From the NCBI RefSeq assembly GCF_900112415.1, contig NZ_FOLV01000001.1, forward strand, positions 186,001 to 250,000: 64,000 bases of DNA. The letters are read 5' to 3'. The translations under genes and the position numbers were made by a program. The notes below the pieces were generated by a model. The model was not told the origin of the DNA, made no database searches, and worked only from the letters and a program-made list of their open reading frames with translations. Of this stretch, positions 9,681 to 32,421 are shown in pieces (the stretch's first letter is position 1; each line of letters starts with the position of its first letter). The stretch comes from Bacillus sp. 491mf (lineage in GTDB: Bacteria; Bacillota; Bacilli; Bacillales; Bacillaceae_G).

Positions 9681-9827
9681 AGAATCACATCCTTTTCTTG
9701 TTGTAAAATAAAGAAAAGTATAAATATTTACAATAATATTATAACGCATTTTTTTATTTTTATGAAGAAAAGAGATGATTCTTTCGATATTTTTTTTAGA
9801 AGTTTGCTAAACTAATTTTATAAACTA

Positions 9828-10089
9828 TATAAATACAAATTAAAAATCCGACATATAAGCCCTCTTTTTTGAGGAGAGCGAGAGCATCTGGCTATGTATA
9901 ATAGCGGTCAGGGCTTATTTCTGCCACCTGCAAGGTTTAAAAACAAAAAGAGTAAGTAGCGATTATGTTATATTCTGCATTGAAGCGACTTATGGATGTT
10001 CAGGCCCGTTGGTAAGGTTCTTAAATATGAGGGCTTAGGAGAAAGAGCTAGACAAAGATGTCGAAAAATTAAAATGGATTTATATATAG
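9828..10089 (+). repeat. Longer intergenic repeat, copy A
   Basis: About 262 bp closely related to 18690-18970 and 55896-56080. Shared blocks include GAGAGCATCTGGC, AGCGGTCAGGGC, CTGCCAC, GCGACTTAT, AAGGTTCTTA and AGACAAAGATGTC-AAAAATYAAAATGG. AAGCCCT and AGGGCTT can pair and the pairing is kept with different bases in other copies, so a structured RNA is possible. A perfect Spo0A box TGTCGAA is at 10059-10065. It resembles bcr-type repeats of the B. cereus group; exact class unverified. The rest of the 9681-10176 gap is AT-rich with nothing recognisable. Confidence 0.75.
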
Positions 10090-10176
10090 TAAAGCTTTCG
10101 TTAGTAGAAATTCTTTTTTTGTTTGCGGAAAGTTATTCATAATGTATAGCATGATGAAAATGGGGGCTTTGTAAAG

Positions 10177-11055
10177 ATGAGGATTGGAATTGTTGGGCCA
10201 GGAGCAATTGGACTTCTTTTTGCGTTTTATTTACAAAAAAATGAGCAGGATGTCACACTGTACACACGAACAGCGGAGCAATCTGAGCGTTTGAAAGAGT
10301 CCGGAATTACATGTGTGCAAAATGGTATGCGGGAAACTGTATTTCCTCGTGTAAATCATTTAGAGAATATAAAAAATGAAACACATGATTATATATTTAT
10401 TGCTGTAAAGCAATATCATTTAGAAGAGGTATTACCGTGTTTGCAAGCGGAAAAGCGACTTATCTTCTTACAAAATGGAATGGGACACCTTCATTTATTA
10501 CAACAAATTCAAGGTGCTAGCGTTGCAGTAGGAATTGTAGAGCACGGAGCGAAAAAGGAAAATGGGAGTATCGTTCATCATACTGGAGTTGGTAGTACGA
10601 AATTTGGAATCATACATGGAGAGAGGAAGGACTTAGAGCTTCTGTTCACTGCATTTTCTTCGAGTCTATTCCCGGCAGTGGTTGAAAGTGATTGGAAGCG
10701 AATCATGATAAATAAGCTTGTCGTAAATGCGTGTATTAACCCATTAACCGCGTTGTTCGGTGTACAAAATGGAGAATTGTTGACAAATCCTTCGTTTCAC
10801 AAAGTGATGAAGCAAGTATTTTCAGAAGTAATGGGAATAGTAGGTGACGTACAATGTAAAGAGTATTGGGATCGTGTATGCACAGTGTGTGAAAATACAG
10901 CTCATAACACTTCCTCTATGTTAACGGATGTACGCAATAATAGAAAAACAGAAATTGATGCAATTGTCGGTTATTTACTTGAAGAAGCAGAGAAACAACA
11001 AAAATCAGTTCCAACGCTGTCTTTTTTGTATCATTCTATAAAAGGATTAGAATGA
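10177..11055 (+). CDS. panE: 2-dehydropantoate 2-reductase
   Basis: 292 residues; reduces ketopantoate to pantoate with NADPH in pantothenate synthesis (ylbQ in B. subtilis). The N-terminal Rossmann motif is GPGAIGLLFA (residues 7-16). The C-terminal domain has INKLVVNACINPLTAL, with the catalytic Lys and substrate Asn of KPR enzymes. Length is normal. It stands between the repeat and bshC; pantoate feeds the same CoA route as coaD at 2636. Confidence 0.92.
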   Translation: MRIGIVGPGAIGLLFAFYLQKNEQDVTLYTRTAEQSERLKESGITCVQNGMRETVFPRVNHLENIKNETHDYIFIAVKQYHLEEVLPCLQAEKRLIFLQNGMGHLHLLQQIQGASVAVGIVEHGAKKENGSIVHHTGVGSTKFGIIHGERKDLELLFTAFSSSLFPAVVESDWKRIMINKLVVNACINPLTALFGVQNGELLTNPSFHKVMKQVFSEVMGIVGDVQCKEYWDRVCTVCENTAHNTSSMLTDVRNNRKTEIDAIVGYLLEEAEKQQKSVPTLSFLYHSIKGLE

Positions 11056-11136
11056 TAAGAGTTATTCTTTGCTTTTGCAACGAACATTGACTACAATTTG
11101 GTTGGTGAGAGATTCGGAGATGAAAGGAAGAAGTAT

Positions 11137-12753
11137 ATGGAGATAAAAGAAATCTCTGTCCCGCTTCAAGGAGTTGTTGCGGACTATTTGAAACATAAAA
11201 AAGAAATTCAAGAATGCTTTGATTATCCAGTAACGGAAGAGAGTTTTGTAAGACGTATACAAGATTTACGAAATAGACAGTATCCAAGACAAGAGTTAGT
11301 ATCACATTTATTACAATATAATCAAGAATTAAATGCAGGAGAAAAAACGTTTCAAAATATCAATGCTTTGTTAGAAGAAGATACATACGTTGTTATAGGA
11401 GGGCAACAAGCTGGATTGCTAACGGGTCCTCTTTATACGATCCATAAAATTATATCTATTTTACAACTTGCAAAGGAAAAAGAAGCTTCGCTTGGCGTAC
11501 GAGTGGTTCCTGTTTTTTGGATTGCTGGTGAAGATCATGACATTGATGAAATTAACCATGTGTTCGTTACGAAAAACGGAAAAGTAAAAAAGACAATTTT
11601 TCACGGACGTAACCTAAATAAAGCGAGTGCATCTGAAACGGAGATTTCCATCGAGGATTGTCAACATTGGATCGAAGAAATATTTAAAACATATCCAGAA
11701 ACAAAACATACAAAGGATCTACTTCGTTTGGTAGAAGAATGTTTACAGCAATCACGTACATACGTTGATTTTTTTGCGCGTTTTATTACAAAGCTATTTA
11801 TGCATTCGGGTTTAATTCTTGTAGATTCTCATCATCCTATCCTGCGGAATATTGAAGTTCCTTTTTTAAAAGAATTATTAGCACGCTATAAAAATGTGCA
11901 AGTAGCACTTAACGATCAGCAACGTATATTACGTGATTTGGACTATAAAACAATTATTGAAACAAAGCCGAATGTAGTGCATATCTTTATGGAGATTAAT
12001 GGGGAACGTCTTTTGTTAGAGGAAGAAGAAGGGCGTTTTATTTGTAAAGAAGGGATGTATTCGTTTTCCTACGAGGAGATTATAAAAAGTATGGAAGATC
12101 ATCCAAAACGATTTAGTAACAATGTTGTTACAAGACCGCTTATGCAAGAATATATTTTTCCTACACTTGCATTTATTGGTGGACCAGGAGAAATTGCGTA
12201 TTGGAGTGAACTCCAACAAGTATTTCATGCGGTGGACTTCCAAATGCCGCCAGTTGTGCCTCGCTTGACAATTAGTTATATAGAACGCGATATTGAAACT
12301 GATTTACAGGATTTGCAGATTCAGGAGAGCGAAGTGTTCAGTACTGGTATTCCTGCACTGCGAGAAAAGTGGCTATCTAAGCAAGTTGAAGAGCCGATAG
12401 ACAGTCACTTTATGAATGCGTCGGAGCAAATTGGAGCAATTCATACATCATTACAACAATTTGTTCAGAAAGTAAGTCCAGGTCTTCGAGATTTTGCGAA
12501 GAAAAATGAGTTGAAAATTATGCAACAACTTGAACTGTTAGAGCGGACAATTCAATCTGACTTAGAAAGAAAACATGAAGTGCAGCTTAATAAATTCAGA
12601 AGAATTGAGTGCTCATTACAACCGTTAGGTGCACCGCAAGAACGAATATGGAACATTTGTTATTATTTAAATGTCTATGGGCTTGATTTTGTAGAACGAG
12701 TAATGAAGCAAACTTATCGTTGGAATGGAAAACAGCATATTATAAAATTATAA
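11137..12753 (+). CDS. bshC: Bacillithiol synthase BshC
   Basis: 538 residues from ATG 11137 (MEIKEISVPLQG), with GAAAGGAAG before it; the frame extends upstream to a TTG at 11098 with no site. BshC is thought to add cysteine to glucosaminyl-malate in the last step of bacillithiol synthesis. Family marks include GGQQAGLLTGPLYTIHK, WIAGEDHDIDEINH and FIGGPGEIAYWSEL. A C-terminal coiled coil (about 440-500) is visible. Single-gene unit with its own terminator. Confidence 0.93.
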   Translation: MEIKEISVPLQGVVADYLKHKKEIQECFDYPVTEESFVRRIQDLRNRQYPRQELVSHLLQYNQELNAGEKTFQNINALLEEDTYVVIGGQQAGLLTGPLYTIHKIISILQLAKEKEASLGVRVVPVFWIAGEDHDIDEINHVFVTKNGKVKKTIFHGRNLNKASASETEISIEDCQHWIEEIFKTYPETKHTKDLLRLVEECLQQSRTYVDFFARFITKLFMHSGLILVDSHHPILRNIEVPFLKELLARYKNVQVALNDQQRILRDLDYKTIIETKPNVVHIFMEINGERLLLEEEEGRFICKEGMYSFSYEEIIKSMEDHPKRFSNNVVTRPLMQEYIFPTLAFIGGPGEIAYWSELQQVFHAVDFQMPPVVPRLTISYIERDIETDLQDLQIQESEVFSTGIPALREKWLSKQVEEPIDSHFMNASEQIGAIHTSLQQFVQKVSPGLRDFAKKNELKIMQQLELLERTIQSDLERKHEVQLNKFRRIECSLQPLGAPQERIWNICYYLNVYGLDFVERVMKQTYRWNGKQHIIKL

Positions 12754-12789
12754 AATCTTGCTCTTAAGAGCAGGATTTTATTTTATTTT
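12753..12789 (+). terminator. Terminator of bshC
   Basis: AAAATCTTGCTCTT pairs with AAGAGCAGGATTTT, followed by a T-rich run, right after the stop. Confidence 0.85.
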
Positions 12790-13137
12790 GTGGAATTACC
12801 TGTAAAATAAATTGGTTTATTGATTATATGTATTGTAAAGTATATTGGTTGAAAATACACAACTTTTGAAGAATGGTTCTTTTTTGACAAAATGGAACAA
12901 AAAGAAAGTGAATTATCATCATTTTCGACATGTTTTTGTGAAATTTCCCGAAAAAGATGATAAGATTTAGTATATAATAAGATAAAACTTTAATTTAGTA
13001 GGAAGTGGAATTCTTACTAATTACTGACCACGCCAATCGGAATTTTATGGACAATTATCTTGATTCCTTTTCATTTTTGGAATTGGGGATAAAAAGATGA
13101 CTTCAAAAGATTATTTTGTAAAAAAGTAGGTGCAACA
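12790..13137 (+). promoter_or_regulatory. Leader region of the division/cell-wall cluster; mraZ absent
   Basis: No gene in 350 bp where mraZ is usually found. Visible signals: TTCGACA, an inverted perfect Spo0A box, at 12924-12930; TATAAT at 12973-12978 with no good -35; and an inverted repeat TTAGTAGGAA / TTCTTACTAA (12995-13004 and 13011-13020) around GTGGAA, which would lie near the 5' end of a transcript from that -10. Confidence 0.5.
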
Positions 13138-14070
13138 ATGTTTAAACATGTAACAGTGTTATTAAAAGAAACAGTAGATGGATTGGAAATTAAACCTAAT
13201 GGTACATATGTAGATTGTACGCTAGGAGGTGGAGGACATAGTGCTTATTTACTATCTCAACTTTCTGAAGAAGGAAGATTAATTGCATTTGATCAAGATG
13301 AGGTTGCAATTCAAAATGCAAAAGAAAAATTCTCTTCTTATGACGGTCAATTTATAACTGTAAAAAGTAACTTTCGTTATTTAAAAGAAAAATTAAATGA
13401 ATTAGGAATAACGGAAGTAGACGGTATTTTATTCGATTTAGGTGTTTCTTCCCCACAATTAGATACGCCAGAACGTGGATTTAGTTACCACCACGATGCT
13501 CCGCTTGATATGCGCATGGATCAAGATGCCCCGCTAACAGCATATGACGTTGTAAATAGTTGGTCATATGAACAACTTGTAAGAATCTTTTTTCAATATG
13601 GTGAAGAAAAGTTTTCAAAGCAAATTGCAAGAAAAATTGAAGCATACCGTGAAAATAAATCAATTGAAACAACTGGAGAACTAGTGGAGTTAATTAAAGA
13701 AGGGATTCCTGCCCCGGCTAGGCGAACGGGAGGACATCCTGCGAAGCGAGTATTCCAGGCAATTCGTATTGCAGTTAATGATGAATTGAAAGTATTTGAG
13801 TACGCGTTAGAAGCGGCGATCGATATGACGAAAACAGGTGGTCGAATTAGTGTGATTACATTCCATTCGCTAGAAGATCGGATTTGTAAAACGACATTTA
13901 AAAGACATAGTACAACACCACAGCTTCCACCAGGATTACCAATTATTCCGGATGAATACAAGCCGAAGTTGAAGTTAATTACAAGAAAGCCGATTTTGCC
14001 TTCTGATGTAGAATTAGAAGAAAATAAACGAGCACGTTCTTCGAAGTTACGAATTGCTGAAAAACTATAA
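13138..14070 (+). CDS. rsmH: 16S rRNA (cytosine1402-N4)-methyltransferase RsmH
   Basis: 310 residues (mraW). Methylates N4 of C1402 in the 16S rRNA P-site with SAM. Opens [19 protein letters not shown] motif [14 protein letters not shown] (26-39); [14 protein letters not shown] (about 98-111) and the FHSLEDR motif near the end are all family signatures. First gene of the dcw cluster here because mraZ is missing. Runs into ftsL after 15 bases. Confidence 0.96.
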
Positions 14071-14085
14071 AAAGGAGAGAGAGGT

Positions 14086-14448
14086 ATGTCAAATTTAGCC
14101 GTTAAGTACAAAAAGCAACAAGTGGAAATAGAAGTACAATCTCAAGCTCCGCAGCAAGTAGTACAGCCAACTGTCAAAACAAAAATTACAAGAATTGAAA
14201 AATTATTGTATGTTGCATTTATTGGCTTTTTATTATATACATGCGTAGCTGTTATTGGGAATAAAGCGGCGCTATATGAAGCTGATGCTAAAGTGACAGA
14301 GATGGAAAGCACCCTTATAAAACACCAAAAAGAAAATCAAGAATTACAAGCTGAAAAGGAAAAGCTAACACGTTATGATCGCATTGCAGAAATTGCAAAA
14401 AAACATGGACTTGAAATTAATGCGAATCATGTAAAAGGCTTAAATTAA
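14086..14448 (+). CDS. ftsL: Cell division protein FtsL
   Basis: 120 residues, AAAGGAGAGAGG site. Short cytoplasmic N-terminus, one membrane segment (about 43-61, LLYVAFIGFLLYTCVAVIG) and a C-terminal extracytoplasmic leucine-zipper coiled coil. FtsL pairs with DivIC and DivIB in the septal complex that activates PBP2B and FtsW. The AEIAKKHGLEIN end is typical. Position between rsmH and pbpB confirms it. Confidence 0.93.
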   Translation: MSNLAVKYKKQQVEIEVQSQAPQQVVQPTVKTKITRIEKLLYVAFIGFLLYTCVAVIGNKAALYEADAKVTEMESTLIKHQKENQELQAEKEKLTRYDRIAEIAKKHGLEINANHVKGLN

Positions 14449-14467
14449 TAATAGGTGTGAAGAAAAG

Positions 14468-16645
14468 ATGAATATACGTAAATTTCATACTAACAAAGGA
14501 GCAGGATTCTTCATTAAGGTGTTTCTCCTGCTCTTTTTTCTGTTGTTAGCGCGCTTTCTTTATATTCAAGCAACGAAAACAGTGCATGGAGTAGATTTAG
14601 AGACAATTGCACAGCAAAAGCATAATAAAAAAGGGGTACTTGAAGCAAATCGAGGAACGATTTACGATCAAAATGGTTACGTGCTTGCTCAGGATGCAAA
14701 TTCGTATAAGATGGTTGCCGCACTAAAAGGACAAAAGTATGTGAAAGACAAAGATGATGCGGCAGAGAAAATATCAAAAGTACTTGAGGTTGATAAAAAT
14801 GAAATTTTACAGTACTTAAATAAAAATGCTACACAAGTAGAGTTCGGAAAGATTGGAAAAGACTTAACGAAAGAAAAGAAAATTCAAATTGATAATCTGA
14901 AAATAGATGGAATATCGTTTGTTACAGAAAAGGCAAGAATATATCCGAATGGAAATTTTGCTTCTTACATACTTGGATTTGCAAAACCAAATGATGAAGG
15001 AATTGCAGAAGGGAAATTTGGACTGGAACAAAGCTTAGATAAATATTTAAGAGCTTCTAACGGAAGCATGAAGTATACAGGAGATACGAAAGGTATTGCG
15101 TTAGATGGTGGTAAACAGTCTGTGAAGCCTCCTAAAAACGGGGATAATGTATATTTAACACTTGACCAACGGATTCAAGGCTATCTAGAAGATGCGATGG
15201 AAGAGGCAGAAAAACATTATGATCCGTCTATGTTAATTGGAGTCGTAGCAGATCCGAAAACAGGAAAAATTTTAGCGATGTCTAGCAGACCGAGTTTTGA
15301 TCCGAATCCGAATAATCGAGATATTCAATACTTTTTAAATGATACGATTGCAAACGCGTATGAACCAGGTTCAACGATGAAAATCTTTACGTTAGCAGCT
15401 GCTATTAATGAGGGCGTATATAAAGGACAAGATTATTATCAATCTGGTAGATACAAAGTGGGGAATGAGGAAATTAGAGATCATAATGGCGGATCAGGTT
15501 GGGGTTCTATTACGTTTGACGAGGGAGTAGAGCGCTCATCAAACGTTGCTTTTGCTATTTTAGGAAATGAAAAGCTAGGCCCTGATCGTTTTCGTCAATA
15601 TATTCATAAGTTTGGTCTGGATGAAAAGACTGGTATTGATTTACCTGGAGAAGGCGAAAATACAATTTTATTTGATAAGAAAATCCAGCAAGTAACAACA
15701 GCATTTGGACAAGGTTCAACTGTAACTCCAATTCAGCTTGTACAAGCAGCTACTGCAATTGCTAACGATGGGAAAATGATGAAACCCTACATGATTGATC
15801 AAATTGTAGATCCGATGGATAATAAAGTTGTCTTGCAACACCGTCCAGAGGAAGTAGGGAAACCAGTTACAAAAGAGACTGCAACGCAAGTAAGGCAACT
15901 GTTAGAACGAGTTGTAACGTCACCGAAAGGGACTGGAACGATGTATAAACTTGATGGATATTCCGTTGGTGGTAAAACAGGAACAGCACAAATTCCGGAT
16001 GGAAAAGGCGGTTATATGATAGGGAAAAATAATTATATATTCTCCTTCCTTGGTATGGCACCAATGGATGACCCACAGCTTGTCATATATTTAGCAGTTA
16101 AGCAACCTAAATTGAAAGACACTGAAAATGGTGCACAGCCGTTATCCGAAATGTTTAAATCTGTTACGAAAAATAGTTTGGAGTATTTGAAAATTAAGCC
16201 AAATGAAATAAAAGATGTGAAAAAACAAGGAAACCAGCAGCAAGCTACTGTTCCAAATGTAACGGGTAAAACAATGGAAGAAGCAAAAGGCATATTGGAA
16301 AAGGCGAAGTTCCGACCTGTTATTTTAGGAGAGGGAAAAATCGGACAACAAGTGCCAAAAGCGAATGAAAAAACGTTAACGGGTGATCGTGTATTCTTAG
16401 TAGGAAATCAACCGAAAATGCCGAATGTTAATGGTTGGGCCCTTCGTGATGTGATGAATTTAGCGAAAATATTAAATCTTGATGTGAAGCTTTCTGGTAC
16501 AGGTTATGTAACTGAGCAAAGTGTCGCTGAAGGTACTCCTTTACAAGAAAGAACACAGGTAGAAGTAAAACTTGAACCACCTCTTGAACCGCAACAAGAA
16601 GCAGAGCGGGAACCAAATAAGAAGGAAAAGAAAGAGGACACGTAA
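14468..16645 (+). CDS. pbpB: Penicillin-binding protein 2B, septal transpeptidase
   Basis: 725 residues. Membrane anchor at about 13-33, a dimerisation domain, then the transpeptidase domain with STMK (active Ser 302), SSN (357-359) and KTGT (Lys 503). Two PASTA domains follow (VPNVTGKTMEEA and MPNVNGWALRDV). The C-terminus is a charged tail. Essential septal class B PBP (FtsI-like) working with FtsW, FtsL and DivIB. Only 19 bases from ftsL. Confidence 0.95.
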   Translation: MNIRKFHTNKGAGFFIKVFLLLFFLLLARFLYIQATKTVHGVDLETIAQQKHNKKGVLEANRGTIYDQNGYVLAQDANSYKMVAALKGQKYVKDKDDAAEKISKVLEVDKNEILQYLNKNATQVEFGKIGKDLTKEKKIQIDNLKIDGISFVTEKARIYPNGNFASYILGFAKPNDEGIAEGKFGLEQSLDKYLRASNGSMKYTGDTKGIALDGGKQSVKPPKNGDNVYLTLDQRIQGYLEDAMEEAEKHYDPSMLIGVVADPKTGKILAMSSRPSFDPNPNNRDIQYFLNDTIANAYEPGSTMKIFTLAAAINEGVYKGQDYYQSGRYKVGNEEIRDHNGGSGWGSITFDEGVERSSNVAFAILGNEKLGPDRFRQYIHKFGLDEKTGIDLPGEGENTILFDKKIQQVTTAFGQGSTVTPIQLVQAATAIANDGKMMKPYMIDQIVDPMDNKVVLQHRPEEVGKPVTKETATQVRQLLERVVTSPKGTGTMYKLDGYSVGGKTGTAQIPDGKGGYMIGKNNYIFSFLGMAPMDDPQLVIYLAVKQPKLKDTENGAQPLSEMFKSVTKNSLEYLKIKPNEIKDVKKQGNQQQATVPNVTGKTMEEAKGILEKAKFRPVILGEGKIGQQVPKANEKTLTGDRVFLVGNQPKMPNVNGWALRDVMNLAKILNLDVKLSGTGYVTEQSVAEGTPLQERTQVEVKLEPPLEPQQEAEREPNKKEKKEDT

Positions 16646-16664
16646 CATAGGAGAAATGAACGTG

Positions 16665-16693
16665 TTCTAATGAAACAAGTACAAGCATATATT
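16665..16693 (+). promoter_or_regulatory. Candidate sigma-E promoter of spoVD
   Basis: TTCTAAT (16665-16671), 14-bp spacer, CATATATT (16686-16693): 5 of 7 and 7 of 8 matches to the sigma-E consensus as I remember it. spoVD is a known sigma-E gene in B. subtilis. The predicted start near 16700 would fall at the end of the left arm of the hairpin described next. Confidence 0.45.
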
Positions 16694-16730
16694 GGAACAA
16701 GCTAGGCGTAAAGGAGGCTTGTTCCAATAT
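16689..16730 (+). promoter_or_regulatory. Hairpin enclosing the spoVD ribosome site and start codon
   Basis: A perfect 14-bp inverted repeat, ATATTGGAACAAGC (16689-16702) and GCTTGTTCCAATAT (16717-16730). The 14-base loop holds the ribosome site AAGGAGG, and the right arm runs into the first two bases of the spoVD ATG. Too long to be chance; no T-run, so not a terminator. Confidence 0.85.
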
Positions 16731-18645
16731 GCGTGTATCAAATGTAACGGTAAGAAAAAGACTTATTTTTGTGCTGATTTTTGGTATACTTATTTTTACA
16801 ATTATTGATATTCGTCTTGGATATGTGCAGTTTTTTCTTGGTAATCTGTTAACAGATCGTGCGAAAGATTCATGGAGTCGTAATATTACATTTGAACCTG
16901 AACGGGGAAAAATTGTAGATCGTAATGGTGTGGAACTTGCAACAAATAAAAGTGCACCAACTGTCTTTGTGGTACCAAGGCAAATTGAAAAACCGGCAGA
17001 GACTGCAGAGAAGTTAGCTGCAGTTTTAGGTGTGTCGAAAGAAGATATTTATCAACGCCTTACGAAAAAAGAGTCTATAGTCAGATTAGATAAAGGTGGA
17101 CGAAAAATTTCTCATGATAAGGCGAAAGAAGTTAGAGCTTTAAGTTTAAAGGGTGTATATATTGCTGAAGATTCAATTCGATACTATCCGTTTGGTAAGT
17201 ATTTATCACATGTGCTTGGCTTTGCTGGGAGTGATAATCAAGGGCTTATGGGGCTGGAGTCATATTATGACAAAGAATTAAATGGTGACAAAGGATATGT
17301 CCGTTTCTTTGCTGATGCGAAAGGACAACGCATGCCGAACATAGGCGATGATTATAAGGAGCCAGGCGACGGCTTGAATTTGAAGTTGACAATTGATTCG
17401 CGTATTCAGACAATTATGGAGAGAGAATTAAATATAACAGAGTCTACGTATCATCCAGATGGAATCGTCGCGATTGCAATGAATCCAAATAACGGTGAAA
17501 TATTAGGTATGTCTAGTCGTCCGAGTTTTGACCCAGCGGATTTCAAAAGTGTTTCACCAGAAGTCTTTAACCGAAATCTTCCGGTTTGGAGTACATATGA
17601 ACCAGGATCCACATTTAAAATTATTACACTTGCAGCTGCTTTAAATGAAAAATTAGTAGACTTGGAGAAAGATACGTTTTATGATGATGGAGCGGCAGAA
17701 GTTGGCGGTGCAAGATTGCGTTGCTGGAAAGCGGGGGGGCATGGCAGCCAAACGTTTTTAGAGGTTGTTCAAAACTCTTGTAACCCGGGTTTTATAGAAC
17801 TTGGAGACCGTTTAGGAAAAGAAAAGTTGTTTCAATATATCCGTGATTTTGGATTTGGACAAAAAACAGGTATTGATCTACAAGGAGAAGGTAGAGGGAT
17901 TTTATTTGATCTAAAAAAAGTAGGACCTGTTGAACAAGCGACTACAGCGTTTGGTCAAGGAGTCTCTGTTACCCCGATTCAACAAGTAGCAGCAGTAGCG
18001 GCTGCTGTAAATGGAGGCAAGTTATATCAGCCTTATATAGCGAAAGAATTCATAGACCCAACTACGAACAAAGTAATTAGTAAAAAAACACCTATTGCAA
18101 AGAAACAAGTGATTTCCAAGGAAACATCTGAAAAGGTTCGGTATGCACTTGAGAATGTTGTTGCGAAAGGTTCAGGTAACAAAGCATATATTGATGGATA
18201 TCGTGTTGGAGGGAAAACAGGTACAGCACAAAAAGTAAAAGATGGTAAGTATTTGGATAACAACTATATCGTATCATTTATTGGATTTGCACCAGCGGAT
18301 AATCCGCAAATTGTTGTATATGTCGCTGTAGATAATCCAAAGGGAGTTACACAATTTGGCGGAGTGGTTGCTGCACCAATCGTTGGGAATATTCTTCGTG
18401 ATGTCTTACCGGTTATGGGAGTAGAGCCTAGAAAAGAGCAAATTGAAAAGAAATTAACTTGGGATGAGACGCCATTAGTAGAAGTCCCTAATATAGTAGG
18501 CTTGGATCGAAAGGAATTACAAAGTCAACTTGTTGATTTACAAATTGATGCCAGCGGTGATGGAAACAAAGTGGTTGAACAGTCTCCAAAGCCAGGTACG
18601 AAAGTAAAAGCAGGATCCAAGGTTCGAATATATTTTAATAAGTAA
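16729..18645 (+). CDS. spoVD: Stage V sporulation protein D, spore cortex transpeptidase
   Basis: 638 residues. Class B PBP with a membrane anchor (about 13-33) and transpeptidase motifs STFK (Ser 294), SCN (350-352) and KTGT (Lys 496), then one PASTA domain (VPNIVGLDRKELQ ...) at the C-terminus. SpoVD makes cortex peptidoglycan together with SpoVE. Slightly shorter than pbpB and with a single PASTA domain, as expected. Its ribosome site sits in a strong hairpin. Confidence 0.95.
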   Translation: MRVSNVTVRKRLIFVLIFGILIFTIIDIRLGYVQFFLGNLLTDRAKDSWSRNITFEPERGKIVDRNGVELATNKSAPTVFVVPRQIEKPAETAEKLAAVLGVSKEDIYQRLTKKESIVRLDKGGRKISHDKAKEVRALSLKGVYIAEDSIRYYPFGKYLSHVLGFAGSDNQGLMGLESYYDKELNGDKGYVRFFADAKGQRMPNIGDDYKEPGDGLNLKLTIDSRIQTIMERELNITESTYHPDGIVAIAMNPNNGEILGMSSRPSFDPADFKSVSPEVFNRNLPVWSTYEPGSTFKIITLAAALNEKLVDLEKDTFYDDGAAEVGGARLRCWKAGGHGSQTFLEVVQNSCNPGFIELGDRLGKEKLFQYIRDFGFGQKTGIDLQGEGRGILFDLKKVGPVEQATTAFGQGVSVTPIQQVAAVAAAVNGGKLYQPYIAKEFIDPTTNKVISKKTPIAKKQVISKETSEKVRYALENVVAKGSGNKAYIDGYRVGGKTGTAQKVKDGKYLDNNYIVSFIGFAPADNPQIVVYVAVDNPKGVTQFGGVVAAPIVGNILRDVLPVMGVEPRKEQIEKKLTWDETPLVEVPNIVGLDRKELQSQLVDLQIDASGDGNKVVEQSPKPGTKVKAGSKVRIYFNK

Positions 18646-18689
18646 GTATCAAGGCATGTGTGTACGATATAGTAACACTCAACTAACAA

Positions 18690-18970
18690 TATAAATACAA
18701 ATTGAAAGACTGGCATAAAAACCCTTTTTCTTTTAGGAGGATGAGAGCATCTGGCCGTGCATTGGAGCGGTCAGGGCCTTTTCCTGCCACATACGGGGTT
18801 TAGAACAAAGAGAGCAAGCAAGTAGCGGTTATGTTTTAATCTGCATAGCAGCGACTTATAAAGAAAAGCGGAGCCGCCTGTTTAGGCCATTGGCTAAGGT
18901 TCTTATACATAAGGGCCTAGGAGGCAGAGTTAGACAAAGATGTCAAAAAATCAAAATGGTTTTTATAGTA
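18690..18970 (+). repeat. Longer intergenic repeat, copy B
   Basis: 281 bp, colinear with copy A at 9828-10089 with one variable insert (AAGAAAAGCGGAGCCGCC near 18860). The Spo0A-like box is degenerate here (TGTCAAA at 18941). It fills most of the 437-bp gap between spoVD and murE; the remaining 110 bases before murE hold only AT-rich sequence. Confidence 0.75.
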
Positions 18971-19082
18971 GTGAGATGTTTGATTCACATTGCATGTTGG
19001 GTAAATATATGACATTCTTATTAATGGAGTGCTTTGATAGCATTAATAAGAGGTAAATAAAGAGTAGAGAGGATTTAAAGAA

Positions 19083-20558
19083 ATGAAGTTGCATACACTC
19101 GTATCAAATTTGCATGATTTTCCAGTCATTCCAATAGAAAATCCAGAAATTACATCAATTGAAGCAGATTCACGTAAAGTGACAACTGGAAGTTTATTTG
19201 TATGTATAAAAGGTTATACGGTTGATAGTCATGAATTTGCTATGCAAGCAGCCGCGCAAGGTGCGGCTGCTATTGTTGCGGAAAGACCTATTGATGTTGA
19301 CGTTCCAGTTGTACTTGTTAAAGATACAGTACGTTCTTTAGCAGTGTTAGCTGACTCTTTTTATGGACAGCCGACGCAAAAGTTACACTTAATTGGAATT
19401 ACAGGTACAAATGGAAAGACAACAACATCGCATATAATGAACGAAATTATGCGCGCACATGGACATAAAACAGGGCTAATTGGGACGATTAATATGAAAA
19501 TAGGTGATGAAACGTATGAGGTGAAAAATACAACACCTGATGCATTAACATTACAAAATACGTTCGCTAAAATGGTCGAACAAAATGTAAATAGCGCTGT
19601 TATGGAAGTATCTTCACATGCGTTGCGTCTCGGAAGAGTACATGGATGTGACTATGATGTAGCGGTGTTTACAAACTTAACGCAAGATCATTTAGATTAT
19701 CATAAAACGATGGAAGAGTATAAATATGCAAAAGCCTTGCTATTTGCACAGCTTGGTAATAGTTATCATCATAATCGTGTAAAGTACGCTGTATTAAATA
19801 ATGACGACGCTGCAACAATAGACTTTATGGAAAGTACAGCAGCAACAGTGATTACGTATGGGATTGATACAAAAAGTGATATTATGGCGAAAAACATTGA
19901 GATGACAAGTGCTGGTACGACGTTTACACTCGTAACTCCAAATGAAAGTTTTGACATCACGATGAAATTAATTGGGAAGTTTAATGTGTATAATGTATTA
20001 GCTGCAACAGCTGCATGTTTTGTTTCTGGTGTAGCGCTGCAAACAATTATCGACGTTGTGAAAGAATTAAAAGGTGTTCCTGGCCGCTTTGAAGTTGTTG
20101 ATAGAGGACAAGATTTTACTGTCATTGTTGATTATGCGCATACACCAGATAGTTTAGAAAATGTATTGTTGACAACGAAACAATTTGCAAAAGGTAATGT
20201 GTATTGTATTGTTGGATGCGGCGGAGATCGAGATCGTACGAAACGACCAATTATGGCCAATGTTGCAATGAAATACGCAACGCATGCGATTTATACATCA
20301 GATAATCCGCGTAGCGAACACCCACAAGCAATTCTTGATGATATGATTGAAGGTATAGAGGGAAATAATTATGAAGTAATTGTTGATCGAAAAGAAGCGA
20401 TATTTCATGCTGTATCAGAGGCAAAAGCTGGAGATATTATTGTAATTGCAGGTAAAGGTCATGAGACATATCAAATTATTGGTACAGAGGTACACCATTT
20501 TGACGATCGTGAGGTTGCTGGGGAGGCAATTGCACAACGTTTAAGCATGAAAGAATGA
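19083..20558 (+). CDS. murE: UDP-MurNAc-tripeptide synthetase (meso-DAP adding)
   Basis: 491 residues. Adds meso-diaminopimelate to UDP-MurNAc-L-Ala-D-Glu. ATP loop [13 protein letters not shown] at about 108-120; carbamylated-Lys region and the DNPRSE motif (near residue 406) that selects meso-DAP rather than lysine. Cytoplasmic Mur ligase of normal length. Followed by mraY after 22 bases; same operon as the downstream wall genes. Confidence 0.96.
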
Positions 20559-20580
20559 CAACAAGAGAGGGGGACTAAAT

Positions 20581-21552
20581 ATGCTTGAACAAGGATTATT
20601 AATTACAGTTGGGGTGTCATTTTTAATTTCGGTTGCGTTGTCACCAATTTTTATTCCATTTTTACGTCGTTTAAAATTTGGGCAGAGCATTCGAGATGAA
20701 GGACCAAAATCACATCAAAAGAAATCGGGAACACCGACTATGGGCGGAATTGTTATTTTTATTTCAATTATGATTACGTCTATTATTATGATGTTTAAAT
20801 TTCAAAAAAGTGCTGAGACGTACTTATTGCTTCTTGTTACATTTGGCTACGGTTTAATCGGATTTTTAGATGATTACATTAAAGTTGTAAAAAAACGAAA
20901 TCTTGGTTTAACATCAAAGCAAAAATTGGTAGGACAATTTATTATTGCAGTAGCATTCTTTATCATTGCAAAAGGACAAGGATTTGATACACATTTAATG
21001 ATTCCAGGTACGGAAATTAAGTTTGACTTACACTGGGCGTACTTTATTCTCGTGCTCTTTATGCTGATAGGAGCTTCAAATGCAGTTAACTTAACAGATG
21101 GTTTAGATGGATTATTAGCAGGAACAGCTGCTATTGCATTTGGTGCATATAGTATTATTGCATTTGCTCAGGAACAGTATACAATTGCTATTTTTTGTAT
21201 GGCAGTTGTGGGAGCTGTATTAGGATTTTTAGTATTTAATGCCCATCCCGCAAAAGTGTTTATGGGGGATACAGGATCTTTAGCTCTTGGCGGTGCTTTA
21301 GCTGCTGTTTCCATTTTAACGAAAACAGAATTATTATTAGTTATCATTGGTGGAATGTTTGTTATTGAGACACTCTCTGTTATTATTCAAGTTGTGTCGT
21401 TTAAAACGAGAGGAAAGCGTGTATTCAAAATGAGTCCGCTTCATCACCACTATGAATTATGTGGTTGGTCAGAATGGCGAGTAGTTGTAACGTTCTGGTC
21501 AGTCGGACTTTTATTTGCCGTGTTAGGAATTTATATCGGAGTGTGGATGTAA
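20581..21552 (+). CDS. mraY: Phospho-MurNAc-pentapeptide transferase MraY
   Basis: 323 residues with about ten membrane segments. Makes lipid I from UDP-MurNAc-pentapeptide and undecaprenyl phosphate. Visible motifs: GTPTMGG (47-53), LDDYIKV (about 96-102), [24 protein letters not shown] and the PLHHHYE loop. Complete. Its last codons carry the ribosome site of murD, which starts immediately. Confidence 0.96.
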
Positions 21553-22905
21553 TTGAAAACGATAACTGACTATCAAAATAAAAATATTCTTGTATTAGGT
21601 ATGGCAAAAAGCGGTTATGCTGCAGCTGTCTTATTAAAGAAACTTGGAGCAAATGTGATTGTAAATGATGGCAAGCCGCTTGCTGAAAACCCATTAGCGA
21701 CAGAGTTACAAAGTCAAGGTATAGAAGTTGTATGTGGCGGCCATCCTTTAGAATTATTAGAAAAAAATATTTCTGTCGTTGTAAAAAATCCAGGGATTCC
21801 GTATTCTAATCCGTTACTAGTAGCGGCAAAGAAAAAAAACATTCCGATTATAACAGAAGTAGAACTAGCGTATCGCATTTCGGATGCTCCATTAATTGGG
21901 ATTACAGGATCGAACGGAAAAACAACGACAACAACATTAACATTTGAAATGTTAAAAGAAGGAGAAAAACATCCTGTTATTGCTGGAAATATCGGCATGG
22001 TAGCGTGTGAAGTTGCACAAGGTGTAACGGAACAAGAAGTGGTTGTAACAGAACTTTCTTCTTTTCAATTAATGGGGATTGATACATTTCAACCGAAGAT
22101 TGCGGTGTTGTTAAATTTATTTGAAGCACATTTAGATTATCATGGTACGAAAGAAGAATACGGTTTAGCAAAAGCGAATATCTTTAAAAATCAAAATGAA
22201 AATGACTATAGCATCATTAACGCTGACGATGAAGAGGTAATAATGTTGTCTGAGCAAAGTAAAGGACAAAAAGTGTACTTTTCTACGACGAAAGTCATTG
22301 AAGACGGTGCGTGTGTAAAGGACGGCGCTCTTTACTTCAAAGGTGAAAAAGTGATTGATGTTCAAGATATCGTATTGCCAGGGAAACATAATTTAGAAAA
22401 TATCCTAGCTGCTATGAGCATTGCAAAGCTTATGGGTGCTGCAAATGAAGCGATTATAGCAGTCTTAAAACGGTTTACAGGTGTAAAGCATCGTTTAGAA
22501 TATGTAACGACAATTCAAAACCGTAAGTTTTATAATGATTCGAAAGCAACAAATATGCTGGCGACAGAAAAAGCATTGTCTGCATTTACGAAACCAGTCA
22601 TTTTATTAGCTGGCGGACTAGATCGCGGGAATGAATTTGACGAATTAATTCCATACTTTGAGAATGTAAAGGCATTATTTACATTCGGACAAACTGCACC
22701 GAAGCTTGTTGAAGTGGCAGAAAAGGCTGGAATGAAAGGTATTAAATGTGTCGATAATGTGGAACAAGCGGTACAAGAAGCGTTTGCTCTGTCTGAAGAA
22801 GGAGATATAATTCTTTTATCTCCAGCATGTGCAAGCTGGGATCAATTTAAAACATTTGAAGAAAGAGGAGACATGTTTATACAAGCTGTGCATAAGCTAG
22901 TATAA
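21553..22905 (+). CDS. murD: UDP-MurNAc-L-alanine:D-glutamate ligase
   Basis: 450 residues, TTG start directly after the mraY stop with GGAGTGTGG inside mraY as ribosome site. Adds D-glutamate to UDP-MurNAc-L-Ala. N-terminal Rossmann-like [12 protein letters not shown] loop [11 protein letters not shown] (about 116-126), and the EAHLDYHGT and [12 protein letters not shown] motifs. The TAA stop is part of an ATAAAGTGAAA sequence that resembles one end of the short repeat. Confidence 0.95.
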
Positions 22906-22950
22906 AGTGAAAGAATCATCAGTGGATTATTTCTGCTGATGATTCTTTTA
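22902..22950 (+). terminator. Terminator after murD with repeat-like start
   Basis: AAAGAATCATCAG (22910-22922) pairs perfectly with CTGATGATTCTTT (22936-22948) then T residues. The preceding ATAAAGTGAAA is shared with the TTTAT-type repeats, so the terminator may be a modified repeat. Confidence 0.8.
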
Positions 22951-23161
22951 TAGATAAAATAATGTGAAATTTCTATCGGTGAGAGAGCTCATCTTCTACT
23001 GATGAGAAATCTTCACCAGGTTCTTACAGGCAGTTATTCACACATATCTTCTTTGATTTTGCGGTGGAATTAGGCTGCTTGCCTCTTGCCTAAATAAATG
23101 AGACTTCGGTTGTAAAAAAAGTATGGTTAACGAAAAGCTACATTCAAAGAGGTGATACTCA

Positions 23162-24259
23162 TTGCCAACAAAAAAGACGCCTGACTTTATTCTTATAATT
23201 GTAACCTTGTTACTTTTGACGGTAGGAATGGTGATGGTATACAGCGCTAGTGCTGTATGGGCTTCGTATAAAATGGGAGATTCGTTCTTTTTTGCAAAAC
23301 GTCAATTGTTATTTGCTGGGCTTGGTGTCGTTGCTATGTTTTTTATTATGAAGATTGATTATTGGGTGTGGCGTACATATTCTAAAGTGATTTTACTCAT
23401 TTGTTTTGTTCTCCTTATATTAGTTTTAATTCCAGGTATTGGACTGGTGCGCGGCGGCGCTCGAAGTTGGATTGGGATAGGGGCATTCTCAATTCAGCCT
23501 TCGGAGTTTATGAAGTTTGCGATGATTATTTTTTTAGCGAAATTTTTATCGGAAAAACAAAAAATGATTACATCTTTTAAACGAGGATTGCTTCCTTCGC
23601 TTAGTTTTGTATTTGTTGCATTTGGCATGATTATGCTGCAACCAGATTTGGGAACGGGAACCGTAATGGTTGGCACTTGTATTGTTATGATTTTTGTTTC
23701 GGGAGCACGGATTTTTCACTTTTCCATGTTAGGACTAATAGGAGTAGCAGGATTTGTAGGGCTGATTGTATCAGCACCATATCGAATGAAACGGATTACA
23801 TCTTATTTAGATCCATGGTCGGATCCGCTTGGAAGTGGATTTCAAATTATTCAATCGTTACTTGCAATCGGACCGGGTGGATTATTTGGTCTTGGTCTTG
23901 GGCAAAGCAGACAGAAATTTCTTTACTTACCAGAGCCGCAAACAGACTTTATTTTTGCGATTCTTTCTGAAGAATTAGGTTTTATTGGTGGTTCGTTTGT
24001 GTTATTATTATTTAGTCTGTTGTTATGGCGTGGGATTCGAGTAGCATTAGGAGCGCCAGACTTATATGGAACTTTTTTAGCAGTCGGGATTGTGGCGATG
24101 ATTGCGATTCAAGTAATGATTAACATCGGTGTTGTAACTGGTTTAATGCCAGTTACAGGAATTACCTTACCATTTTTAAGTTATGGTGGGTCTAGCTTGA
24201 CCCTTATGTTAATGGCGGTTGGAGTATTACTAAATATAAGTCGCCATTCTCGCTACTAA
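23162..24259 (+). CDS. spoVE: Stage V sporulation protein E, FtsW/RodA-type glycosyltransferase
   Basis: 365 residues, TTG start with AAAGAGGTGAT upstream. SEDS-family membrane protein with about ten membrane segments; signatures GGARSWIGIGAFSIQPSE and PVTGITLPFLSYGGSS. SEDS proteins polymerise lipid II; SpoVE works with SpoVD in cortex synthesis. Because a separate vegetative ftsW usually exists elsewhere in Bacillus, I assign spoVE by position. Unit closed by a terminator. Confidence 0.93.
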   Translation: MPTKKTPDFILIIVTLLLLTVGMVMVYSASAVWASYKMGDSFFFAKRQLLFAGLGVVAMFFIMKIDYWVWRTYSKVILLICFVLLILVLIPGIGLVRGGARSWIGIGAFSIQPSEFMKFAMIIFLAKFLSEKQKMITSFKRGLLPSLSFVFVAFGMIMLQPDLGTGTVMVGTCIVMIFVSGARIFHFSMLGLIGVAGFVGLIVSAPYRMKRITSYLDPWSDPLGSGFQIIQSLLAIGPGGLFGLGLGQSRQKFLYLPEPQTDFIFAILSEELGFIGGSFVLLLFSLLLWRGIRVALGAPDLYGTFLAVGIVAMIAIQVMINIGVVTGLMPVTGITLPFLSYGGSSLTLMLMAVGVLLNISRHSRY

Positions 24260-24285
24260 ACCCTGTTTTTATGACAGGGTTTTTC
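24258..24285 (+). terminator. Terminator of spoVE
   Basis: AAACCCTG, loop TTTTTATGA, CAGGGTTTTT, overlapping the spoVE stop codon. Confidence 0.85.
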
Positions 24286-24426
24286 GTATGTAAAAATAGA
24301 AACTAAGCGATTGACATATGAATAGCATACAGTGAAATTTATGAACAGTAAGGTTAGTTAAACAAATCGGACTTTTATGATCTGGCAGTAGTGGGATAAT
24401 AGAAAAAAGAAGCGGAGGAATAAGCA

Positions 24427-25530
24427 GTGCGAGTATTAGTCAGTGGTGGCGGAACAGGTGGGCACATTTATCCAGCTCTTGCGTTAATTCGAGAAATCAA
24501 AAAAATTCATCCGGAAGCGAGATTTTTATATATTGGTACTGAAAATGGTTTGGAGAGTAAAATTGTTCGCAAAGCGGGGATACCTTTTCAATCCATTGTT
24601 ATTAGTGGGTTCAAGCGTAAATTATCAGTTGACAATGTGAAAACGGTGATGCGTTTTGTGAAAGGTGTACAGGATAGTAAACGGTACATACGTCGTTTTA
24701 ATCCAGATGTTGTTATTGGAACAGGTGGTTATGTATGTGGTCCGGTTGTATACGCAGCAGCTAAACTGGGTATTCCAACAGTTGTACACGAACAAAATAG
24801 TGTACCTGGTGTAACAAATAAATTTTTGAGCCGTTACGTGAATAATGTAGCGGTTTGTTTTGAAGCGGCAGTAGAACATTTCCCGCAAAATAAAGTTGTG
24901 ATGACAGGGAATCCTCGGGCTTCAGAAGTGTTGAATCAAAATGGTATGAAAGGCAAGCGTTCGGTCGGTTTATCTCTTTCAAAAAAATCAGTGTTAATTT
25001 TTGGAGGAAGCCGAGGCGCTAGACCAATTAATGATGCGTTTTTAGAAGCAATTGAACAATTTGGTAATAAAGCTTACGAAGTATTGTACGTTACAGGTGA
25101 AGTGCATTATGATAAAGTGATAGAATTGGTGAAACAAAAAGGGAATCCACACAATGTTATAATTAAGCCGTTCATTGATAATATGCCAGAAGTACTTACT
25201 GGGGTAGATCTTGTTGTTTCGCGTGCAGGTGCCACAACGTTAGCTGAATTGACAGCTTTAGGGAAACCAAGTATTTTAATTCCAAGTCCATATGTTACAA
25301 ACAATCATCAAGAGAAAAACGCTCTTTCTGTTGTTGAAAAGGGGGCAGCAAAAATGCTTCTTGAAAAAGATTTAACAGGTGAAACGCTTCTTGGTGATAT
25401 CGATGAAATTTTATTGGATACACAAAAATTACAAAATATGAAACTTGCTGCAAAGCAGTTAGGAATTCCAGATGCAGCAAATAAGTTATTTGAAGTGATG
25501 AAAAAACTTGTAGAAAATAACGTTAGGTGA
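24427..25530 (+). CDS. murG: UDP-GlcNAc--lipid I transferase MurG
   Basis: 367 residues, GTG start with GGAGGAATAAGCA upstream. Makes lipid II on the inner membrane face. N-terminal [14 protein letters not shown] (residues 7-20), central HEQNSVPG and C-terminal [11 protein letters not shown] with [14 protein letters not shown], all MurG signatures. The 166-bp gap after spoVE probably holds its promoter, which I could not pin down. Confidence 0.96.
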
Positions 25531-25580
25531 ATACCCTGCATACTACTGTAGTACAGAGATTTAATATGGGGGAGATCATC

Positions 25581-26486
25581 ATGAAACAATTAGCAAAAGA
25601 ACTTATGGAAGCACATGTAGGAAAAGTATTAGAAAATGAACCATTAGCTCGTTATACAACAATGAAAATAGGTGGTCCAGCAGATATTTTAGTCATTCCA
25701 AGTAGCATGCAAGGTGTAGAAAAAGCGCTAGAATGTGTGAAAAAGTATAGAACAAAATGGACTACGATTGGTCGCGGTTCTAATCTGCTTGTATCCGATA
25801 AAGGAATTGAAGGTGTTGTCATTCGACTAGGAGAGGGTTTGGATCATTTAGAAGTGACTGGAACGAATGTCCGCGCGGGCGGAGGATATCCTCTTATTAA
25901 GCTTTCAACTCTACTAAGCCGTCAAGGACTCGCAGGATTAGAGTTTGCAAGTGGAATCCCAGGAAGTGTAGGCGGGGCTGTGTATATGAATGCAGGCGCT
26001 CATAAATCGGATATGTCTAAAATTGTGAAGCGCGCTCGTGTGATGTTTGAAGACGGAAAGTTTGAATGGTTAACGAAAGAAGAGCTAGAATTTTCTTATC
26101 GTACATCTGTGTTACAAAAGAAGCGCCCTGGTATTGTACTAGAAGTAGAATTGCAATTAAAAGAAGGAAATCGTGACGAAATTATCGGGATCATGCAAAA
26201 AAATAAAGATTATCGTCGTGATACTCAACCTTGGAACCATCCGTGTGCAGGGAGCATTTTTAGAAACCCGCTCCCAAACTATGCTGGTGATCTAGTGGAA
26301 AAAGCTGGGCTGCGCGGTTATCAAATTGGTGGTGCGAAAATTTCAGAAATGCATGGAAACTTCATTGTAAACACGGGGACAGCATCAGCACAAGATGTTC
26401 TTGATTTAATCTCTTTTGTAAAGAAGACAATACTAGAACAGTTTGGTTTAGATATGCACACTGAAGTAGAAATCATTGGAAGATAA
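25581..26486 (+). CDS. murB: UDP-N-acetylenolpyruvoylglucosamine reductase
   Basis: 301 residues from ATG 25581 ([12 protein letters not shown]), GGGGGAG site. FAD enzyme making UDP-MurNAc. Contains [19 protein letters not shown], the flavin [13 protein letters not shown] loop, catalytic Ser in GSIFRNP and the terminal Glu in HTEVEIIG, hence the type IIa short form. Upstream in-frame residues from 25527 lack a ribosome site. Confidence 0.95.
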
Positions 26487-32285: not shown

Positions 32286-32360
32286 ATGAAGCTAAGCAGA
32301 CAATTGTCTCGTTATAAAGAATGTAGGTTTCATTTGATAAAGTGAGACAAATGAATTAAT

Positions 32361-32389
32361 GCATAAAATTCCCTCCAAAGGAGATACTT
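32361..32389 (+). promoter_or_regulatory. Candidate sigma-F/sigma-G promoter of sigG
   Basis: GCATA (32361-32365), 17-bp spacer, GATACTT (32383-32389), close to the sigma-G pattern GHATR - CATWMTA. The gene is known to be autoregulated and sigma-F-started in B. subtilis. Predicted start near 32396. Confidence 0.5.
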
Positions 32390-32421
32390 TACACTGTACA
32401 GCAACTCCCGTTAGGAGGGAA
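32369..32421 (+). promoter_or_regulatory. Inverted repeat that can hide the sigG ribosome site
   Basis: TTCCCTCC (32369-32376) is exactly complementary to GGAGGGAA (32414-32421), which contains the sigG ribosome site. The left arm lies between the -35 and -10 of the candidate sigG promoter, so only mRNA reading through from spoIIGA-sigE would contain both arms. Confidence 0.6.

What the first reader, a model, noticed from the sequence alone, without database searches (positions are those of the whole stretch)
16665..16731. spoVD ribosome site is locked in a 14-bp hairpin that only read-through mRNA would contain
Seen: perfect inverted repeat 16689-16702 / 16717-16730 with AAGGAGG in the loop and the ATG at the stem base. 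A candidate sigma-E promoter (16665-16693) would start transcription near 16700, inside or after the left arm. Inference: vegetative read-through from pbpB folds the hairpin and blocks spoVD translation, whereas the sporulation transcript lacks the left arm and is translated.
Basis: partly seen in the sequence, partly recalled or inferred. Interest (0 to 1): 0.75.

Follow-up and report, generated by a model that had tools for sequence, protein, structure and literature searches.

The report
Read-through hairpin that silences spoVD
A hairpin hides the start site of a spore-wall gene in any RNA that runs in from the growth gene next door, while the gene's own spore-time RNA should begin inside the hairpin and escape it; relatives seem to have rebuilt the same lock with different letters, but nobody has yet measured it here.

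Summary
The hairpin is real: 14 of 14 pairs (16689-16702/16717-16730), Shine-Dalgarno in the loop, start codon at the stem base. Exposing the start site costs about 20-23 kcal/mol in read-through RNA but 8.7-8.9 once the 5' end lies at 16697-16703, where the predicted sigma-E start falls. The promoter is conserved: 140 of 211 unique spoVD upstream regions carry TTCTA-N14-16-GCATA. Upstream sequence hides the spoVD start more than shuffled sequence does in 38 of 90 junctions and 30 of 97 in a second set, against 9 of 269 starts of four neighbouring genes. Arms fit their own partners better than swapped ones (16.69 against 14.70; best of 200 permutations 15.78). The window is the most extreme of set 1. 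Most single junctions are not significant; ten subtilis/pumilus/licheniformis-type junctions lack the effect and all have terminator calls, but a general trade-off failed a phylogeny-aware test. The design is known from T4 gene e and B. subtilis sigG; the window's own sigG shows it too. I read spoVD as a new, repeatedly rebuilt member of that kind. Transcription start, read-through RNA and translation block are inferred. A SpoIIID operator role is not excluded.

The parts
14468..16645 (+). pbpB-like gene, proposed source of read-through RNA
   Evidence: ORF; best NCBIfam hits are class B penicillin-binding protein models below their cut-offs; name pbpB from position and recall
16665..16671 (+). 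-35 element TTCTAAT of the predicted sigma-E promoter
   Evidence: 140 of 211 unique upstream regions have TTCTA-N14-16-GCATA; sigma-E control of spoVD in B. subtilis from PMC517825 passages
16686..16693 (+). -10 element CATATATT, overlapping the left arm
   Evidence: conserved GCATA
16689..16702 (+). left arm of the hairpin, mostly upstream of the predicted start of the spoVD RNA
   Evidence: fold
16698..16702 (+). predicted transcription start, about 16700 (inferred, not mapped)
   Evidence: seven bases after the -10 element (spacing recalled); opening cost falls to 8.9 by 16697
16710..16717 (+). Shine-Dalgarno AAAGGAGG, in the loop and first base of the right arm
   Evidence: sequence
16717..16730 (+). 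right arm of the hairpin, between Shine-Dalgarno and start codon
16729..18645 (+). spoVD, sporulation-specific penicillin-binding protein
   Evidence: TIGR02214 967.8 bits, cut-off 688
32369..32421 (+). same layout at sigG: TTCCCTCC 32369-32376 against GGAGGGAA 32414-32421 over the ribosome site of sigG (start 32426)
   Evidence: sigG by TIGR02850

Best explanation
Read-through silencing by a blocking arm that is part of the promoter. RNA that runs on from pbpB during growth contains the left arm, folds, and buries the spoVD Shine-Dalgarno and start codon, so little SpoVD is made. In the mother cell during sporulation, sigma-E polymerase starts at about 16700, past most of the left arm; that RNA cannot form the stem and is translated. 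Shown by computation: the hairpin, its restriction to the longer RNA, the conserved promoter, and species-specific fit of the arms in relatives. Inferred: the exact start, the existence of read-through RNA, and the translation block. The left arm is probably also held by its promoter or operator role, so it is mainly the right arm that is fitted to it.
For: Hairpin and its loss in the short RNA. No terminator-like site called between pbpB and spoVD on the + strand. Conserved promoter. Opening cost above shuffles in 38 of 90 and 30 of 97, against 9 of 269 for ftsL, pbpB, murE and mraY starts. Native arms beat swapped ones: above the cross mean in 70 of 88 and 71 of 97; helix score 16.69 against 14.70 +- 0.30, best of 200 permutations 15.78, in 86 dissimilar representatives. 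G.U exceeds A.C inside helices: 24 to 7, 12 to 3. In hairpin-positive junctions the partners of the start region lie at least half upstream of the predicted start in 38 of 38 and 24 of 30. Same layout at sigG in this window. Published precedents: PMC5942855, PMC3014915.
Against: No measured 5' end, read-through RNA or translation. 52 of 90 and 67 of 97 junctions not significant. Subtilis/pumilus/licheniformis-type junctions (10 in set 1) have z 0.9 or less. Several Metabacillus keep the left-arm letters without a matching right arm (by eye), so the left arm has another reason to be conserved. In some species the short RNA is as hard or harder to open (for example L032, L040). In the swap test the window is only z 1.5, 4 of 40 foreign segments doing as well. 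The margin is small: a start at 16694 or before would keep the cost at 15.4 or more. A short frame 16670-16705 crosses the left arm. The short RNA still costs 8.8, above the set-1 mean of 6.3 (printout).
Confidence: 0.72

Rival explanations
1. DNA-level operator: the arms are inverted binding sites for SpoIIID, which represses spoVD after sigma-E activation, and the RNA hairpin is a by-product.
For: SpoIIID represses spoVD and has reported binding sites there in B. subtilis (PMC517825 passages). The window's arms resemble the recalled consensus WWRRACARNY on both strands by eye. Right-arm matches of at least 9/10 are commoner in hairpin-positive junctions: 13 of 38 against 7 of 52, and 4 of 30 against 1 of 67. 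In set 2 left-arm matches are also commoner: 16 of 30 against 21 of 67.
Against: In set 1 left-arm matches are not commoner in hairpin-positive junctions: 11 of 38 against 25 of 52. Right-arm excess is expected if the right arm is simply the complement of the left. G.U exceeds A.C, though clades repeat and 30 other mismatches occur. Stems such as L162 pair the -10 box with the start codon in letters without the ACA core (by eye).
Confidence: 0.15
2. The complementarity is a by-product of two separately conserved pieces, the promoter and the MRVS start codons, with the window an extreme by chance.
For: Promoter and start codons are both conserved; many foreign promoter segments also pair with the window's right arm.
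Against: Permuted partners lose fit in 86 dissimilar representatives, none of 200 permutations reaching the native mean; neighbours show nothing like it; the set-2 result repeats set 1.
Confidence: 0.06
3. Leader-peptide control: translation of the short frame 16670-16705 opens the left arm in read-through RNA and couples spoVD to upstream translation.
For: The frame ends at TAG 16703-16705, just before the Shine-Dalgarno, and overlaps a shorter frame as TAATG (by eye).
Against: Such a frame with a Shine-Dalgarno of at least 5/6 occurs in 9 of 187 junctions and the window is not among them.
Confidence: 0.04
4. The stem ends or protects pbpB RNA (terminator or processing site).
For: A stable stem lies shortly after the pbpB stop codon.
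Against: No T run follows and no terminator-like site was called there; no Rfam match.
Confidence: 0.03

Closest known systems
Bacillus subtilis sigG (spoIIIG) read-through hairpin
   Same: Sporulation gene behind a transcribed operon; a large hairpin proposed to block translation of read-through RNA that cannot form in the gene's own RNA (PMC5942855, passages). The window's own sigG shows the layout.
   Different: Other gene, sigma factors and letters. sigG also has a second, small hairpin in its own RNA that lowers translation (same paper).
Phage T4 gene e (lysozyme), soc, 49, I-TevI
   Same: Long early RNA hides the ribosome site in a helix; late promoters lie in the sequence of the 5' strand, so late RNA lacks it; about 100-fold effect for gene e (PMC3014915, passages).
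   Different: Phage timing rather than bacterial development; measured there, predicted here.
IS10 transposase protection from outside transcription (recalled)
   Same: Outside RNA folds an inverted repeat over the ribosome site.
   Different: Guards a mobile element; recalled only, no paper read (one search gave a listing of two other papers).

Membership tests
Read-through-specific ribosome-site occlusion (T4 gene e / sigG type) | Shine-Dalgarno and/or start codon held in a helix in the longer RNA | tested here: met
   predicted fold
Read-through-specific ribosome-site occlusion (T4 gene e / sigG type) | A gene-specific promoter overlaps the 5' strand so the own RNA lacks it | tested here: inconclusive
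   promoter conserved and cost lost by 16697, but the start is predicted, not mapped
Read-through-specific ribosome-site occlusion (T4 gene e / sigG type) | Longer RNA is really made when the gene should be silent | not testable with these tools
   only absence of a called terminator
Read-through-specific ribosome-site occlusion (T4 gene e / sigG type) | Longer RNA is poorly translated, own RNA well | not testable with these tools
   needs reporters or ribosome profiling
SpoIIID operator pair | SpoIIID sites on both arms | tested here: inconclusive
   weak recalled consensus; mixed counts
Intrinsic terminator | G+C-rich stem followed by a T run | tested here: not met
Known riboswitch or Rfam RNA family | match to a covariance model | tested here: not met
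   0 matches at E<=1 in 10000-26000

The most novel reading that the evidence does not exclude
Promoter-embedded anti-start arms are a general insulation device of endospore formers: where a sporulation gene sits behind a transcribed gene, its own promoter sequence is used as the blocking arm, and the fitted right arm is rebuilt again and again with unrelated letters (window, L076, L087 group, L162/L181, L222). The -10 element then does two jobs: start site for sigma E in DNA, lock on the start codon in RNA.
Probability: 0.35. Interest if true: 0.7.

Novelty: new member of a known kind. Interest (0 to 1): 0.52.

Why it matters
Many spore genes sit inside growth operons and should stay silent in growing cells. 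This gives a simple way to do that without a terminator: the promoter itself supplies the blocking strand. It also warns that RNA level from long operon transcripts need not predict protein, and it offers a natural series of differently built locks for testing how strong such hairpins must be.

Tried and rejected
Terminator-or-hairpin trade-off: a plain test looked good (terminator call, n=50, mean z 1.21; no call, n=36, mean z 2.82; Mann-Whitney p 0.002; 4 of 90 without a found pbpB stop), but independent pairs on a tree of 88 SpoVD rows gave no support (median p 1), and my terminator caller is permissive. Kept only as a remark on the subtilis-type groups.

Leader-peptide role: weak. The L222 fold used the wrong stretch and is not evidence. 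My notebook entry miscounts the dropped rows of set 2; one search shows 6 duplicates, 3 without a clear start, 21 with a weak promoter score. Literature searches for a report of this structure at spoVD gave none in their listings; the one paper is about another subject (passages). Passages of PMC3906833 and PMC12700454 held nothing on it. Older papers on spoVD and SpoIIID (1994) are recalled, not read. A search for IS10 papers gave only a listing.

Full report
WHAT IS THERE. The inverted repeat 16689-16702 / 16717-16730 is perfect over 14 pairs with a 14-nt loop. The loop holds AAAGGAG of the Shine-Dalgarno AAAGGAGG, and the start codon (16729-16731) is at the base of the stem. The 81-nt RNA folds at -25.2 kcal/mol (z -5.4, 0 of 200 shuffles as good); RNA starting at 16699 or 16700 is ordinary (z -0.35, -0.19). 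The gene is spoVD. The pbpB-like gene ends at 16645; no terminator-like site was called between it and spoVD on the + strand; no Rfam family matches in 10000-26000. No whole genome is held for the window.

HOW THE STRUCTURE DEPENDS ON THE 5' END. The cost of opening GGAGG to start codon is 19.8-22.8 kcal/mol for the 5' ends tried between 16640 and 16676, 15.4 at 16694, 11.8 at 16695, 9.2 at 16696 and 8.7-8.9 from 16697 to 16703. The predicted promoter (TTCTAAT 16665-16671, CATATATT 16686-16693) would start at about 16700, a few bases past the loss point. The -10-to-start distance is recalled; the start is not mapped.

THE PROMOTER IS CONSERVED. Of 211 unique 130-nt upstream regions, 140 hold TTCTA-N14-16-GCATA (126 with 15), against a mean of 0.07 in shuffles; 132 hold TACAAGCATA. 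PMC517825 (passages) places spoVD among the sigma-E genes repressed by SpoIIID in B. subtilis and cites SpoIIID sites there.

RELATIVES, SET 1. One genome scan found 537 relatives of SpoVD and kept the best 80; genomes of the family of the nearest one added 19 (a 20th match, L102, dropped as off-target). With the window that is 100 junctions, 90 unique. No title names a B. cereus-group species and the genomes are unnamed, so I could not compare the hairpin inside the window's own group. RNA starting 60 nt before the -10 box was compared with 150 shuffles of the part upstream of the predicted start: mean z 1.92, 38 of 90 at p<=0.05, window highest (z 8.9; 22.6 kcal/mol against 8.8 in the short RNA); the longer RNA is more than 3 kcal/mol harder to open in 69 of 90.

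SET 2, TAKEN AFTERWARDS. A search of 150 genomes of the order gave matches in 147, 148 places. I used 127 of the 148 (27 loci and 100 fetched), leaving out 5 from genomes already used and the 16 most distant. Thirty were dropped: 6 duplicates, 3 without a clear start, 21 with a weak promoter score; 97 remain. Mean z 1.40; 30 of 97 at p<=0.05 (80 shuffles each); 53 of 97 more than 3 kcal/mol harder in the long form. Dropping weak promoters favours my reading somewhat.

CONTROLS. The same measure with a fixed split 29 nt before the start, on 269 starts of ftsL (51), pbpB (66), murE (73) and mraY (79) in the 80 loci, gives mean z -0.40, 0.23, -0.50 and 0.09, and 9 of 269 at p<=0.05. Among 30 mechanically called genes of the window, spoVD ranks first (z 9.1) and sigG third (z 5.7); the mean is 1.02 and five genes besides spoVD exceed 2.5, so the window as a whole is not at zero.

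CO-VARIATION. Swapping upstream segments between dissimilar species keeps promoter and start context yet lowers the cost: native above the cross mean in 70 of 88 (mean z 1.05; 17 of 88 in the top 5%, L073 and L079 left out for weak promoters) and 71 of 97 (mean z 1.22). The window itself is not extreme here (z 1.5; 4 of 40 foreign segments do as well). For 86 representatives less than 75% alike, the best helix scores 16.69 native and 14.70 +- 0.30 permuted, best of 200 permutations 15.78; 7 of 86 exceed the 99th and 15 of 86 reach the 95th percentile. Mismatches inside helices are G.U more often than A.C: 24 to 7 (10 other) over 88 junctions, 12 to 3 (30 other) in 30 representatives; this leans to RNA but clades repeat. 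Different letters with similar geometry include L076, L087, L162 and L222; L162 folds with z -4.0. On a tree of 88 SpoVD rows the hairpin state needs at least 24 changes, 16 with a strict threshold, some of which will be threshold noise.

WHAT GOES AGAINST IT. 52 of 90 and 67 of 97 junctions show no significant effect. The 10 subtilis-, pumilus- and licheniformis-type junctions of set 1 have z 0.9 or less and all 10 have terminator calls. Several Metabacillus keep the left-arm letters without a matching right arm (by eye), so the left arm is conserved for another reason too. In L032 and L040 the short RNA is the harder one to open. In set 2, 6 of 30 hairpin-positive junctions have most pairing partners downstream of the predicted start. 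Terminators and hairpins replacing each other did not survive a phylogeny-aware test.

RIVALS. The main one is a pair of SpoIIID sites. With a recalled consensus, left-arm matches of at least 9/10 are 11 of 38 in hairpin-positive and 25 of 52 in other junctions of set 1, and 16 of 30 against 21 of 67 in set 2; right-arm matches are 13 of 38 against 7 of 52, and 4 of 30 against 1 of 67. This is not settled, and both roles may coexist. A short frame (16670-16705) crosses the left arm and could open it if translated; support is weak.

COMPARISON WITH WHAT IS KNOWN. The logic matches phage T4 gene e, where long early RNAs hide the ribosome site and late RNAs start past the 5' strand, about a 100-fold effect (PMC3014915, passages), and B. 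subtilis sigG, whose read-through RNA is proposed to be blocked by a hairpin that its own RNA cannot form (PMC5942855, passages). The window's own sigG shows this layout: TTCCCTCC 32369-32376 against GGAGGGAA 32414-32421; cost 13.4-14.3 with the 5' ends tried from 32290 to 32360 and 7.0-9.9 from 32372 on. Hence: a new member of a known kind, with comparative evidence that it is selected and repeatedly rebuilt. Searches for a report at spoVD gave none in their listings; the library lacks most subscription papers.

VERDICT. What remains is experimental: the 5' end, the read-through RNA and the translation difference.

Noticed in passing
window 32369-32421 (sigG, start 32426): The known kind of sigG read-through hairpin is present in this window, with its left arm in the promoter region of sigG.
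   Followed up: partly
window 9681-9782, - strand (acetyltransferase gene, start 9680): Second-ranked gene (z 6.6): arms at about 9782-9765 and 9699-9681 flank a TATAAT-like box, so its own RNA might also lack the left arm (by eye).
   Followed up: partly
window 18685-18970 and 9823-10091: The spoVD-murE gap holds a stretch about 74% identical over 290 bases to one beside another gene; probably a dispersed repeat.
   Followed up: no
window 22910-22948: A 13-bp perfect inverted repeat, terminator-like by eye, lies between murD and spoVE, so spoVE may be insulated in the other way.
   Followed up: no
L015, L018, L019, L034, L061: Mesobacillus junctions have 75-94 nt from the -10 box to the start, a long loop, and yet right arms complementary to the left arm in several.
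   Followed up: partly
just after the -10 box in many relatives: GAACGAGCC-like letters around the predicted start recur even where nothing pairs with them; the reason is unknown.
   Followed up: partly
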